Source: Sphingomonadales bacterium | GTDB lineage: Bacteria; Pseudomonadota; Alphaproteobacteria; Sphingomonadales; Sphingomonadaceae | Reading direction: 5' to 3' | Assembly: GCA_018971065.1 (NCBI GenBank) | Contig: JAGWVC010000016.1 | Coordinates: 1 to 51,220, forward strand | Length of the DNA: 51,220 bases | Part shown: in pieces, positions 20,791-24,146 of the stretch | Position numbering within the stretch: the stretch's first letter is position 1 | Layout: each line of letters opens with the position of its first letter | The notes under the pieces: generated by a model | What the model was told of the DNA's origin: nothing | The model's database searches: none | The model's input: only the letters and a program-made list of their open reading frames with translations | Position numbers and translations under genes: made by a program

Positions 20791-21321
20791 TCAGGCCCTC
20801 TCGATCAATGCGGCAAGCCGCTTCAGGCCGCGATGGATGTTCACTTTCACCAGGCTCTCGCTCTGGCCGGTGCTGGCCGAAGCCTCGGTGATCGACAGCC
20901 CGTCGATCCGCACCAGCGCGATCGCGCGGCGCTGCGCGTCGGGCAGCGCCGCGAACAGCCGGTCCAGGCTCAACCGCGCCATCACCGCTTCCTCCTCGTC
21001 GTCCACGCTCGCCACATCGTCGGCCAGTTCCACCTCGCCCGCGTTGCGATAGGCGGCGCGCAAATGGTCCACGAAGCGGTAGCGCGCAATCGCCGCCAGC
21101 CACGGAATCACCGGCCGCGCCGGATCATAGGTGGCCAGCTTGCGATGCACCGAAAGCAGGGTTTCCTGCACCAGATCGTCGATCCCCTCGGGCTGCACCT
21201 TGCGCCGGAAATAGCGCAGCAGCCAGGTCCGGCAGGCCGCCAGCAGGGTGGCATAGGCCTGCCGGTCGCCGCGCTGCGCCAGCCCCGCCAGACGGGAAAG
21301 CGAGGCTTCGTCGGCAATCAC
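20791..21321 (-). CDS. sigF: ECF RNA polymerase sigma factor SigF
   Basis: The 176-residue protein has region 2 (GIDDLVQETLLSVHRKLATY, then PWLAAIARYRFVDHLR) and region 4 (LPDAQRRAIALVRIDGLSI, SESLVKVNIHRGLKRL). Pairing with NrsF, and the bufferin genes around it, identify it as the SigF type. It uses a GTG start overlapping the doxX stop (GTGA). Because it is read from the bufferin promoter upstream, it probably autoregulates. Confidence 0.92.
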   Translation of the reverse strand: MIADEASLSRLAGLAQRGDRQAYATLLAACRTWLLRYFRRKVQPEGIDDLVQETLLSVHRKLATYDPARPVIPWLAAIARYRFVDHLRAAYRNAGEVELADDVASVDDEEEAVMARLSLDRLFAALPDAQRRAIALVRIDGLSITEASASTGQSESLVKVNIHRGLKRLAALIERA

Positions 21322-21785
21322 CCCCGCGTCCGCGCCACGAATGCCGCATCAGCGGAAATCAGCCCGCCGCCACGCACCGCCAGCACCAACGCCAGCGCCG
21401 CCCACAACGAATGCTCGGGCCACCAGGCATCGGGATAGACGAAGATCTGGATCGTCATCGTCATCCCCAGCAGCCCCAGCGCCGAAGCCCGCGTGAACAG
21501 CCCTGCCAGCAGCAGCGCGGGCAGCACATGTTCCGCCGCATTCGCCAGCGGCGCGGCCAGCGCGGCGGGCAGCGGCACCCCGGCATATTCGCTGCGGAAC
21601 AGCTCGCGCGTCGCGTCGGTCAGTGTGAACCAGGTGCCCGACTCGACCTTGGTCTGCCCGGACCGCCAGAACACCCCGCCCAGCGCCACCCGCACCAGCA
21701 GCAGCGCCAGGCTTTCGGGGATGCGCCCCGAAAGCCACGCCACCGCCGCGTCATAACGACGCAGCGGTGCGGCCATCACGCTCAC
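21318..21785 (-). CDS. DoxX-family membrane protein of the bufferin operon
   Basis: The 155-residue protein has about four membrane helices and the DoxX signature (LALLLVRVALGGVFWRSGQTKV). DoxX proteins recur in DUF2282/DUF692 operons, where they have been called BufD; their exact role is not established. The GTG start at 21785 overlaps the precursor-peptide stop (GTGA); an ATG at 21776 is an alternative. The stop overlaps sigF. Confidence 0.88.
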   Translation of the reverse strand: MSVMAAPLRRYDAAVAWLSGRIPESLALLLVRVALGGVFWRSGQTKVESGTWFTLTDATRELFRSEYAGVPLPAALAAPLANAAEHVLPALLLAGLFTRASALGLLGMTMTIQIFVYPDAWWPEHSLWAALALVLAVRGGGLISADAAFVARTRG

Positions 21786-22057
21786 GCCTGCGCCTCCAGC
21801 GTGCCGTGGCCCTTCGGCGTCTTCGTGGTCAGGCAGGTGCCCGCCGGCACCAGCTTCCAGGCATTGCCCTGAAAGTCCTTCGTCGAGGTTCCGGCGCAGC
21901 TTGTCCCCGGCCCGGCCTTGCAGTCATTCTTGCCCGCCTTGGCCACGCCGAAGCACTTCTCCATCGGCTTCTTCGCGGCGTCGGCGGCATCGGCCTGCGC
22001 GGCCAGCGCGGCAGCGGCGATCACGGCAACGGCGGCGGCTGATTTCATCACGGTCAT
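21782..22057 (-). CDS. bufA: DUF2282 bufferin precursor peptide, type with four cysteines
   Basis: The 91-residue protein has a signal peptide (about 1-22) and a mature part with four cysteines: C35 in EKCFGVAKAGKNDC, C46, C54 in PGTSCAGTS and C75 in VPAGTC. This is the KCYGVAKAGKNDC-type DUF2282 family. Relatives are bufferins, periplasmic copper-binding peptides whose cysteines are modified by a DUF692 enzyme. GGGGAG lies 7 nt before the ATG. It heads the operon with doxX, sigF and nrsF and has a SigF-like promoter upstream. Confidence 0.93.
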   Translation of the reverse strand: MTVMKSAAAVAVIAAAALAAQADAADAAKKPMEKCFGVAKAGKNDCKAGPGTSCAGTSTKDFQGNAWKLVPAGTCLTTKTPKGHGTLEAQA

Positions 22058-22110
22058 GCGGATACTCCCCTTTGCGTCGGCCCGCCATCGCGGCGTGCGC
22101 TGCCTGCCGA

Positions 22111-22136
22111 TTCGGTGGTTCTGTGACCCAGGTTAC
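22111..22136 (-). promoter_or_regulatory. SigF-type promoter of the leftward bufferin operon
   Basis: On the minus strand GTAACC (22136-22131), exactly 16 nt, then CGAA (22114-22111). It lies 54 bp upstream of the leftward bufA. The pattern equals the GTAACC-N16-CGAA element recalled for Caulobacter SigF, and the same pattern with the same spacing is repeated on the other strand. Confidence 0.8.
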
Positions 22137-22170
22137 AGACGCCCCGGAAGAAGATTTTTCATGAAGGGGC

Positions 22171-22196: not shown

Positions 22197-22240
22197 CCAG
22201 CCGATGCCAATCCGGCACCAGACCTTTCCGGGAGAATACG

Positions 22241-22525
22241 ATGACCCTGCTCAAGACCACCGCCACGGCCGCCTCCACCGCCGCGCTGATCGCGCTGTCG
22301 GCGCTGGCTCACGCCGCCACGCCGCCCGCCGGCAGCACCGGCGCCGCGCTGGGCGCCGCCGACACCGTCCACTGCTATGGCGTCAACACCTGCAAGGGCA
22401 CCGCCGATTGCAAGACCACCCAGCACGACTGCAAGGGCATGAATTCGTGCAAGGGCCAGGGCTTCAAGGCGCTGTCCACCACCGCCTGCCTGAAGCGCGG
22501 CGGCACCATCGGCGACATCCGCTGA
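22241..22525 (+). CDS. bufA: DUF2282 bufferin precursor peptide, CYGVN type with six cysteines
   Basis: The 94-residue protein has a signal peptide cleaved near AHA (about 25) and a mature region with C45 (HCYGVNTC), C51, C57, C64, C70 (CKGMNSCKGQGF) and C83. This is the second DUF2282 subtype, distinct from the leftward precursor. In this family cysteines are converted to heterocycles by a DUF692 enzyme, giving a periplasmic copper-binding peptide. GGGAGA precedes the ATG. bufB follows after 62 bp. Confidence 0.93.
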   Translation: MTLLKTTATAASTAALIALSALAHAATPPAGSTGAALGAADTVHCYGVNTCKGTADCKTTQHDCKGMNSCKGQGFKALSTTACLKRGGTIGDIR

Positions 22526-22587
22526 TCCAGCCCCGGCCGGCCCGTCCGGGTCGGCCGGGTTCACTTGATTCCACGAAAGCACCATCG

Positions 22588-23421
22588 ATGATCCCGCCCT
22601 TCACCGGCTTCGGCCTCGGCCTGCGCAAGGACCACCACGCCGATTTCCTCACCGCAACGCAGCCGGTCGATTTCGTCGAGATCATCTCGGAAAACTTCAT
22701 GGCCTGCGGCGGCCAGCCGCTGCGCACGCTCGATGCGGTGCGCGAACGCCACCCGGTGGCAATGCACGGTGTCTCGCTCTCGCTCGGCTCGCCCGAAGGC
22801 CTCGACACCGGATACCTTGCCGAACTGAAAGCCCTGACGCGCCACGTCGATCCGCTGTGGGTGTCCGATCACCTGTGCTGGACCCGCATCGGCGGCTTCG
22901 CCACGCATGACCTGCTGCCCCTGCCTTACACCGACGAGGCGCTCGCCACCTGCATCGCCAACCTGTCCCGCGCGCAGGATGTGCTGGAACGCCCGCTGCT
23001 GGTCGAAAATCCGTCCAGCTATGTCACCTTCGGCGAAAGCACGATGTCCGAATGGCAGTTCCTGGCGCTGCTGGCACAGGAAACCGGCTGCCACCTGCTG
23101 CTCGACGTCAACAACGTCTACGTTTCCAGTGTCAACCACGGCTTCGACGCGCACGCCTTCCTGGCGGGCCTCCCTGCCGACCGGGTCCGCCAGATTCATC
23201 TTGCCGGCCACAGCCCCGGCCCGGCCGAGATGCTGATCGACACGCACGACACCCCGGTCTGCGATCCGGTATGGCGGCTTTATGCCCACGCTGTCGCCCG
23301 CTTCGGCCCCTGTGCGACGATGATCGAGCGCGACGACGCCATCCCGCCGTTGCCCGCTTTGCTTGCCGAACTCGACCAGGCCCGCGCCATCGCCGGCAAC
23401 ACCCTGGAACACGCCGCATGA
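22588..23421 (+). CDS. bufB: DUF692 multinuclear iron oxidase (MNIO), BufB
   Basis: The 277-residue TIM-barrel protein shows the DUF692 metal-ligand motifs in order: VEIISENF, AMHGVSLSLG, SDHLCW, LVENPSSY, LLLDVNNVYVSS, QIHLAGH, DTHD and MIERDD. MNIO enzymes use a multi-iron centre and O2 to modify cysteines of small peptides. The adjacent DUF2282 genes are the obvious substrates. It forms a translationally coupled pair with the DUF2063 gene (ATGA overlap). The enzyme acts in the cytoplasm before peptide export. Confidence 0.95.
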   Translation: MIPPFTGFGLGLRKDHHADFLTATQPVDFVEIISENFMACGGQPLRTLDAVRERHPVAMHGVSLSLGSPEGLDTGYLAELKALTRHVDPLWVSDHLCWTRIGGFATHDLLPLPYTDEALATCIANLSRAQDVLERPLLVENPSSYVTFGESTMSEWQFLALLAQETGCHLLLDVNNVYVSSVNHGFDAHAFLAGLPADRVRQIHLAGHSPGPAEMLIDTHDTPVCDPVWRLYAHAVARFGPCATMIERDDAIPPLPALLAELDQARAIAGNTLEHAA

Positions 23422-24146
23422 ACCTGCTCGCCCGCCAGCACGCCTTCCGCGCCGCCATCACCGTCGCAGACGACGATGACGGCACGCCGTTTCCCGGATC
23501 GCCCGGCATGGCCATCTACCGCAATGCCTATCGCGGCCGGCTGCTGTCCGCGCTCGAAGTCTCGTTCGCGCGCACCCGCCAATGGGTCGGCGAGGACGCC
23601 TTCACCGCCGCCGCCTGCCACCATGTCCTGACCATCCCGCCCACCGGCTGGACGCTTGACGCCTATGGCGCGCAATTCCCCGCGCTGCTGGACGCGCTGT
23701 TCGCGCAAGACCCCGAAGTCGCCGAACTGGCCTGGCTCGAATGGCACCTGCAACAGGCCTTCGCCGCCCCGGACGCAGCCACTCTCGATCTCGCCGCGCT
23801 TTCCGCGCACGACGCCGACGACTGGGAACGCCTGTGCTTCGACATGGCGCCCGGATTCGCGATGCGCGCCGTTGCCACCAACTGCACCGCGCTGTGGACC
23901 GCGCTGCTTTCCGATGACGCCGCCGGGTTCGCCGTCCAGCCGGAAGCCGATGCCGCGCTGATCGTCTGGCGGCAGGACCTTGCCCCGCGCTGGCGCCTCA
24001 GCCCCGCACCCGAAGCGCATGCCCTCGGCCGCCTTGCCGCCGGCGAACCGTTCGGCACGGTCGCCGCCAATTCCGACCCGGCCGAGCTGGGCGCGTGGCT
24101 GGCCGACTGGCTCGCCAGCAGCCTGTTCGCCGCCGCCGCCACCTAA
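23418..24146 (+). CDS. bufC: DUF2063 partner protein of the MNIO enzyme, BufC
   Basis: The 242-residue protein has the DUF2063 N-terminal signature (MAIYRNAYRGRLLSALE) typical of the protein paired with DUF692 enzymes. It is thought to recognise the precursor peptide and present it to the oxidase. Its ATG overlaps the bufB stop. The 3' end overlaps the convergent metallophosphoesterase gene by 4 bp. Confidence 0.92.
   Translation: MNLLARQHAFRAAITVADDDDGTPFPGSPGMAIYRNAYRGRLLSALEVSFARTRQWVGEDAFTAAACHHVLTIPPTGWTLDAYGAQFPALLDALFAQDPEVAELAWLEWHLQQAFAAPDAATLDLAALSAHDADDWERLCFDMAPGFAMRAVATNCTALWTALLSDDAAGFAVQPEADAALIVWRQDLAPRWRLSPAPEAHALGRLAAGEPFGTVAANSDPAELGAWLADWLASSLFAAAAT

What the first reader, a model, noticed from the sequence alone, without database searches (positions are those of the whole stretch)
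21318..24146. Two different bufferin precursors share one modifying enzyme pair and one sigma factor
The locus has two distinct DUF2282 peptides, one with four cysteines (EKCFGVAKAGKNDC type) and one with six (HCYGVNTC...CKGMNSCKGQG type). They face away from each other. One is with DoxX, SigF and NrsF; the other is with a single DUF692 MNIO and a single DUF2063 protein. As I recall, Caulobacter keeps its two bufferin sets in separate operons, each with its own enzyme. Here one BufB/BufC pair may have to act on both peptides, or one peptide may stay unmodified. Either answer would say how MNIO partners choose substrates.
Basis: partly seen in the sequence, partly recalled or inferred. Interest (0 to 1): 0.78.

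Follow-up and report, generated by a model that had tools for sequence, protein, structure and literature searches.

The report
Two copper peptides, one shared maturase
Back-to-back genes encode two different copper-buffering peptides that appear to be switched on by the same stress sigma factor, but only one peptide-modifying enzyme pair, which belongs to the second peptide's family; comparison with relatives suggests that this pair also modifies the first peptide.

Summary
The unit is NrsF-SigF-DoxX-BufA1 facing BufA2-BufB-BufC; each direction starts at an exact SigF promoter (GTAACC-N16-CGAA), the only exact matches in the window. In the closest relative's family, 23 of 199 genomes have exactly one BufA1, one BufA2, one MNIO and one DUF2063 gene with BufA1 divergent (18 in the window's gene order), the commonest bufferin arrangement; 24 of 33 genomes with the divergent layout have no second MNIO. 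Tree and gatekeeper residue make the enzyme Buf2-type. That it also modifies BufA1 is inferred: four family genomes (two independent cases) keep a Buf2-type BufBC with Buf1-type precursors and no BufA2 found; all 79 distinct divergent BufA1 keep both core cysteines; the two family genomes with DUF2282 but no MNIO have lost exactly those. Against: two class-sample genomes keep core cysteines without a detected MNIO, and no modification has been measured. The one-pair/several-precursors question is already in print; this locus type makes it testable. New variant of a known kind.

The parts
20143..20784 (-). NrsF, membrane anti-sigma factor; Cys130 and Cys180 near the positions of the two conserved cysteines of Caulobacter NrsF (C131, C181)
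   Evidence: PF06532 130.1 bits; both Cys kept in 73 of 73 distinct NrsF of mixed loci; role of the cysteines from PMC3511200 (passages)
20791..21321 (-). SigF-type ECF sigma factor
   Evidence: PF08281, PF04542; layout conserved
21318..21785 (-). DoxX / HvfX-like membrane protein, overlaps the end of bufA1 (ATGA)
   Evidence: PF07681 55.2 bits; NF050144 38.5 bits, below its cut-off of 80
21782..22057 (-). BufA1: Buf1/DUF2282 bufferin precursor, four Cys, no BufBC of its own in the window
   Evidence: PF10048 85.1 bits; four Cys in 79 of 79 distinct divergent BufA1, this one included
22111..22136 (-). SigF-type promoter, exact GTAACC-N16-CGAA, reads into bufA1-doxX-sigF-nrsF
   Evidence: consensus from PMC3511200 (passage)
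22171..22196 (+). SigF-type promoter, exact GTAACC-N16-CGAA, reads into bufA2-bufB-bufC
22241..22525 (+). BufA2: Buf2 (6-Cys) bufferin precursor with four Cys-Lys core sites; not DUF2282
   Evidence: NF050166 99.6 bits, cut-off 60; no Pfam hit; sequence
22588..23421 (+). BufB: MNIO peptide maturase, Buf2-type (Asp after the presumed catalytic Asp, ERDD)
   Evidence: PF05114 363.4 bits, NF050167 371.6 bits; Buf2 side of the BufB tree; gatekeeper Asp, located by motif and alignment, not by structure
23418..24146 (+). BufC: DUF2063 partner protein, overlaps bufB (ATGA)
   Evidence: PF09836 61.5 bits

Best explanation
This is a two-way SigF regulon for periplasmic copper defence in which one Buf2-type BufB-BufC pair matures two unlike precursors. 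Metal stress at the two NrsF cysteines releases SigF (inferred from Caulobacter). SigF then fires two back-to-back promoters, giving BufA1-DoxX-SigF-NrsF one way and BufA2-BufB-BufC the other (promoter sequences shown, firing inferred). BufBC converts core cysteines to thiooxazoles on BufA2 (inferred from the family) and also on the two central cysteines of BufA1 (inferred). Both peptides are then exported by Sec and bind copper (inferred from the family). The layout may have arisen when an A1-B1-C1-DoxX operon lying back to back with an A2-B2-C2 operon lost its own B1C1, the Buf2 pair taking over (inferred).
For: Sharing is nearly forced: 23 of 199 family genomes have exactly 1 BufA1, 1 BufA2, 1 MNIO and 1 DUF2063 gene with BufA1 divergent from BufA2-BufB; 18 of the 23 have the window's gene order, 4 have sigF-nrsF on the BufA2 side, and in 1 (G052) no doxX/sigF/nrsF was found in the stretch fetched. 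Enzyme type: all 78 distinct enzymes of A2-B loci with a divergent A1 fall on the Buf2 side of the BufB tree (split support 0.978, two misplacements); gatekeeper Asp in 76 of 78. Natural loss of BufA2: G057, G135, G188 (one clade) keep a Buf2-type BufBC with divergent A1, and no A2 was found in the genome; G200 has a Buf2-type BufB behind two tandem A1-type peptides and its only BufA2-profile hits are those two peptides; locus L060 lacks A2 locally (rest of that genome not searched for A2). Core cysteines: four Cys in 79 of 79 distinct divergent A1. The only two of 67 family genomes with a DUF2282 hit but no MNIO have lost exactly the two central Cys and kept the outer two. Co-occurrence: DUF2282 with MNIO in 65 of 67 family genomes and 140 of 142 in a class sample of 387. 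Shared control: both promoters within one mismatch in 70 of 72 mixed loci tested.
Against: No modification of the leftward peptide has been measured. The Buf2 gatekeeper Asp is thought to favour Cys-Lys (PMC13097082), and one core site of this BufA1 is Cys-Ala (TSCA). An HNDCK-type variant was not processed by another enzyme of the class, FonBC, which has Phe at that site. In 9 of 33 family genomes with the divergent layout a second MNIO exists. BufA1 N-termini in mixed loci are not more BufA2-like than those of BufA1 with their own enzyme (AUC 0.372), so no shared leader was found. Two class-sample genomes have core-Cys DUF2282 peptides but no MNIO match: G399 (peptide at bases 22-180 of its contig) and G585 (1.1 Mb). 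The two-Cys control peptides are divergent stand-alone lipoprotein-like genes outside any SigF/DoxX context, probably one lineage. The A2-less cases are two independent losses at most in the survey, plus L060. Absence of a second MNIO may reflect incomplete assemblies.
Confidence: 0.68

Rival explanations
1. BufA1 is not modified here: it acts as an unmodified thiol or disulfide peptide beside DoxX, and BufBC serves BufA2 only.
For: The enzyme is Buf2-type with a Cys-Lys gatekeeper. The literature allows that some precursors stay unmodified (PMC12452194). G399 and G585 keep core cysteines with no MNIO match.
Against: Core cysteines kept in 79 of 79 divergent A1 and lost in the two MNIO-less family genomes. 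A Buf2-type BufBC persists in four family genomes where Buf1-type peptides are the only bufferins that the two profiles found.
Confidence: 0.15
2. BufA1 is modified by a second, Buf1-type BufBC elsewhere in the window's own genome.
For: Own genome not held. 9 of 33 family genomes with the divergent layout have more than one MNIO; among the nearest relatives G003 (L005) also carries an A1-B1-C1-DoxX operon (L168).
Against: 24 of 33 family genomes with the layout have one MNIO; 8 of 9 nearest untruncated relatives have one.
Confidence: 0.12
3. Partial sharing: BufBC modifies only the Cys-Lys site of BufA1 (NDC-K), leaving the Cys-Ala site free.
For: Asp gatekeeper paired with Cys-Lys in the literature model. 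Among pairs of A1 and adjacent Buf1-type enzyme, Asp occurs with Lys after Cys2 in 6 of 10 and without it in 0 of 33.
Against: Lys after Cys2 is present in only 40 of 79 divergent A1, and Cys3 is followed by Ala (76) or Ser (3) yet kept in all 79. The Lys-Asp link rests on two independent pairs.
Confidence: 0.1

Closest known systems
Caulobacter vibrioides Buf1 and Buf2 bufferin operons under SigF-NrsF (PMC3511200, passages read; PMC12452194, named sections read)
   Same: Same peptide families, MNIO plus DUF2063 enzymes, DoxX, SigF-NrsF and the same promoter consensus GTAACC-N16-CGAA
   Different: There each peptide has its own BufBC in a separate operon; here BufA1 has none beside it and the only local BufBC is Buf2-type
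Tandem-precursor bufferin clusters and single-MNIO multi-precursor genomes (PMC12452194)
   Same: More precursors than enzyme pairs; possible multi-substrate MNIO
   Different: Here the two precursors come from different families (Buf1 plus Buf2), are divergent, and both sit behind SigF promoters, whereas the paper's text reports sigma/NrsF genes with Buf1 but not Buf2 clusters (its figures and supplements were not seen)
Captophorins made by FonBC, HvfBC, NgoBC (PMC13097082, three of four parts of Results read)
   Same: MNIO plus PME1 pair installing 5-thiooxazoles; gatekeeper residue next to the catalytic Asp
   Different: EGKCG-repeat substrates and Phe gatekeeper in FonB; Buf1 and Buf2 peptides and Asp here

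Membership tests
Buf1 bufferin precursor (DUF2282) | PF10048 match, signal-type N-terminus and four conserved Cys | tested here: met
   Leftward peptide: 85.1 bits over cut-off 22.4, four Cys, hydrophobic N-terminus by eye; no signal-peptide predictor was run
   No Pfam family at E 0.1 for 22241-22525
Buf2 bufferin precursor (BufA2, Buf_6/12Cys) | NF050166 match over cut-off and six conserved Cys | tested here: met
   Rightward peptide 99.6 bits, cut-off 60, six Cys
Bufferin maturase BufB (MNIO) | PF05114 and NF050167 over cut-off | tested here: met
   363.4 and 371.6 bits
Buf2-type BufB | Groups with enzymes adjacent to BufA2 and has Asp after the catalytic Asp | tested here: met
   Tree split support 0.978; ERDD
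PME-type 1 partner (BufC) | DUF2063 domain plus C-terminal RRE-type domain | tested here: inconclusive
   DUF2063 met (PF09836); length 242 aa fits; the RRE fold was not tested
SigF-NrsF regulon | SigF, NrsF with two Cys, and GTAACC-N16-CGAA promoters | tested here: met
   activity not testable here
Thiooxazole-bearing copper bufferin | Thiooxazole on core Cys and copper binding | not testable with these tools
   Needs mass spectrometry and metal binding assays

The most novel reading that the evidence does not exclude
Sphingomonads run a one-maturase, two-metallophore system: a Buf2-type BufB-BufC has replaced the lost Buf1 enzyme and is a genuine dual-substrate MNIO acting on both a Cys-Lys (BufA2) core and a Cys-Lys/Cys-Ala or Cys-Ala/Cys-Ala (BufA1) core. 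In some lineages BufA2 was then lost, leaving a Buf2-type enzyme that works on Buf1 peptides only, with its gatekeeper Asp starting to change (Glu, Glu, Asn in three of five A2-less loci).
Probability: 0.5. Interest if true: 0.7.

Novelty: new variant of a known kind. Interest (0 to 1): 0.55.

Why it matters
How MNIO-DUF2063 pairs choose substrates is an open question that the field states itself. Genomes with one enzyme pair and one precursor of each bufferin family are natural single-enzyme, two-substrate tests, and relatives that lost one precursor are ready-made controls. The locus also puts a Buf2 enzyme operon behind a SigF promoter beside a sigF-nrsF Buf1 operon, a combination that the parts of the published survey that I read do not describe.

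Tried and rejected
Shared signal-peptide motif as common recognition element: rejected. BufA1 N-termini of mixed loci score above control signal-like N-termini against a BufA2 profile (AUC 0.80) but below BufA1 with their own enzyme (mixed versus own AUC 0.372), so there is no convergence. The 13 same-strand or otherwise placed BufA1 (mostly beta/gammaproteobacteria, also L069, L075 and the two of L154, which score low) fit the mixed-locus N-terminal profile better than BufA1 with own enzyme do (AUC 0.80), which may be common descent.

Lys after Cys2 as adaptation to the Buf2 enzyme: 40 of 79 divergent against 10 of 43 own-enzyme A1 (two unparsed rows, both pieces of the stop-interrupted L139 gene, dropped). 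The Asp gatekeeper link (6 of 10 against 0 of 33) has only two independent pairs, so it is a lead only.

Gatekeeper change after BufA2 loss: Asp in 101 of 106 A2-adjacent against 2 of 5 A2-less loci; the five are not independent and were picked after looking.

Same-strand A1-DoxX-A2-B-C type clusters (beta/gammaproteobacteria and one Caulobacter) as clean single-enzyme cases: rejected. All 12 such genomes have 2 to 4 MNIO each (L021; L023, L024, L027, L054, L055, L057, L061, L062, L075, L079, L080).

A separate BufA1 subfamily for mixed loci: not supported; 17 of 42 own-enzyme BufA1 fall among the mixed ones in the mature-sequence tree. Central-Cys loss as a strict mark of MNIO absence: not strict, see G399 and G585. 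Of 11 weak-hit or MNIO-less genomes looked at, five (G500, G325, G412, G585, G574) gave no bufferin-like peptide by my pattern; G585 and G325 were then read and keep central cysteines, the other three were not followed. G511 (weak MNIO match) shows a peptide whose frame departs from DUF2282 after Cys2, not followed. The 30 loci that were checked all have four Cys, but they are the best-scoring ones. Solved structures: BufB matches 3bww and TglH/MbnB entries, BufC and BufA1 none. No structure was predicted; multi-chain modelling was not on hand.
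Full report
What is there. The window holds, right to left from 22057, bufA1 (21782-22057), doxX (21318-21785), sigF (20791-21321) and nrsF (20143-20784), and left to right from 22241, bufA2 (22241-22525), bufB (22588-23421) and bufC (23418-24146). bufA1/doxX and bufB/bufC overlap by ATGA. The left peptide is DUF2282 (PF10048, 85.1 bits). The right peptide has no Pfam match and is BufA2 (NF050166, 99.6 bits, cut-off 60); the left one reaches only 22.6 bits there. 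So the locus pairs one member of each of the two published bufferin families, Buf1 and Buf2, not two DUF2282 peptides. The enzyme matches the bufferin maturase model (NF050167, 371.6 bits) and its partner is DUF2063. My BufB profile finds no second MNIO in the window. The window's own genome is not held.

Shared control. The Caulobacter SigF consensus GTAACC-N16-CGAA (PMC3511200, passages read) occurs exactly twice in 51,220 bases, both times in the 183-bp gap between the two peptides and facing outwards; the mean in 100 shuffles is 0.01 and none gave two. In relatives, 79 of 79 distinct divergent BufA1 genes and 70 of 72 BufA2 genes tested in the same loci have a match with at most one mismatch within 220 bp of the start that I chose, against 0.6% and 0.4% of shuffled upstream stretches (mononucleotide shuffles); both promoters are present in 70 of 72 loci. 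NrsF keeps two cysteines in 73 of 73 distinct sequences, at 130 and 180 here. In Caulobacter, C131 and C181 affect the hold on SigF (PMC3511200, passages). One SigF circuit for both peptides is therefore well supported; that it fires here is inferred.

How common. 45 of 80 have BufA1 divergent from BufA2-BufB, with sigF on the BufA1 side (as here), on the BufA2 side, or not seen; 12 of 80 have BufA1 upstream on the same strand. A survey of 199 genomes of the family of G001 (the Novosphingobium genome of L001) found PF05114 in 70, PF10048 in 67, NF050166 over cut-off in 40 and PF09836 in 68. The commonest pattern, 23 genomes, is one each of BufA1, BufA2 and MNIO with BufA1 divergent from BufA2-BufB; each of the 23 also has one PF09836. 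In 18 of the 23 the gene order is the window's; in G043, G092, G190 and G213 sigF-nrsF lie on the BufA2 side; in G052 no doxX, sigF or nrsF was found in the stretch fetched. Of 33 genomes with the divergent layout, 24 have a single MNIO. Completeness of 90% was asked for, but the tables show no values, so absences may include gaps.

Which enzyme. 186 BufB occurrences gave 173 distinct sequences. A FastTree tree splits enzymes next to BufA1 from enzymes next to BufA2 with support 0.978 and two misplacements. One, L132, has a four-Cys Buf1-like peptide that my profile had labelled BufA2; the other, L154, is a Buf2-type enzyme behind Buf1-type peptides. All 78 distinct enzymes of A2-B loci with a divergent A1, the window's included, are on the Buf2 side. 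The residue after the catalytic Asp, proposed as gatekeeper in PMC13097082 (three of four parts of Results read), is Asp in 76 of these 78 and in 25 of 28 other A2-adjacent enzymes, but in 7 of 42 enzymes next to BufA1; I placed it by motif and alignment. So BufA1 here is left with an enzyme of the other family.

Does that enzyme act on BufA1? Three lines say yes, none directly. First, natural loss of BufA2: G057, G135 and G188 have a Buf2-type BufBC, divergent BufA1-DoxX-SigF-NrsF, and no BufA2 by NF050166 or by my own 14-sequence profile (only weak chance-level hits in two of them). Each has one MNIO, one DUF2063 gene and two DUF2282 genes, the second a distant gene with a lipoprotein-like N-terminus (by eye) under an exact SigF box. 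They form one clade (0.995), so one loss. G200 has a Buf2-type BufB behind two tandem Buf1-type peptides, which are its only BufA2-profile hits. In L060, from a metagenome-assembled genome with one MNIO, BufA2 is missing locally; the rest of that genome was not searched for it. Second, all 79 distinct divergent BufA1 keep four Cys, among them the central pair that the literature names as modification sites (PMC12452194); with their own enzyme 42 of 45 rows do, the exceptions being two pieces of the interrupted L139 gene and, as I read the printed rows, L160, which my pattern cut badly. Third, in the family survey the only two genomes with a DUF2282 hit and no MNIO (G067, G142) encode peptides that keep the outer Cys pair but have lost both central cysteines; they are divergent stand-alone lipoprotein-like genes with no DoxX, SigF or NrsF match in 10 kb. 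In a class sample of 387 genomes, 140 of 142 with DUF2282 have an MNIO; the two without, G399 (peptide at bases 22-180 of a contig) and G585 (1.1 Mb), keep central cysteines, which tells against a strict rule or reflects gaps.

Against. The Asp gatekeeper model favours Cys-Lys. This BufA1 has NDC-K but TSC-A; across the 79 divergent BufA1, Cys2 is followed by Lys in 40, Ala in 35 and Ser in 4, and Cys3 by Ala in 76 and Ser in 3. FonBC did not process an HNDCK variant, though that enzyme has Phe as gatekeeper. No shared leader motif was found.

Origin. G037 has A1-B1-C1-DoxX divergent from A2-B2-C2 (L088). Deleting B1C1 from such a pair gives an A1-DoxX arm facing A2-B-C, but a gain in the other direction is not excluded.

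What is known. PMC12452194 (abstract, introduction, three of four parts of the results, discussion read) defines Buf1 and Buf2, reports sigma and NrsF genes with Buf1 but not Buf2 clusters, notes tandem precursors and genomes with several precursors and one MNIO pair, and leaves open whether all are modified. Its figures and supplements were not seen, so mixed clusters may be shown there. The listings of my paper searches showed no title or abstract start on Buf1 processed by a Buf2 enzyme; the founding PNAS paper is not held. I rate this a new variant of a known kind.

Noticed in passing
L038 (MAG Sphingobium sp. nzgw535) and L065 (Sphingobium sp. AS12): Stretches with eight (L038) and six (L065) exact SigF boxes; in L038 the first ORFs behind some of them are MsrA (PF01625), MsrB (PF01641), a thioredoxin (PF00085), DUF1223 and a CN_hydrolase protein, suggesting a wider periplasmic redox-repair SigF regulon.
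   Followed up: partly
L033, L037, L038, L048, L051: The reverse split: a Buf2-type BufB with no precursor directly upstream, while a BufA2 gene lies divergent from an A1-B1-C1-DoxX operon in the same locus.
   Followed up: partly
L175-L180, L184: 7 of 20 stretches fetched around stand-alone Buf1-type hits carry a precursor with a lipoprotein-like N-terminus (by eye) and an exact SigF box, away from any BufBC; modified in trans, or not at all.
   Followed up: partly
L060, about 9400-10010: An open frame runs from an NrsF-like stretch into BufB, and BufA2 is missing between them; possible deletion joint or assembly fault.
   Followed up: no
G067 and G142 (L228, L230): DUF2282-like lipoprotein-type peptides with only the outer two cysteines, in genomes without an MNIO match.
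   Followed up: yes
window 25107-25400 (+): Small ORF with a signal-like N-terminus and two Cys near the locus, no Pfam hit; not a bufferin by these profiles.
   Followed up: no
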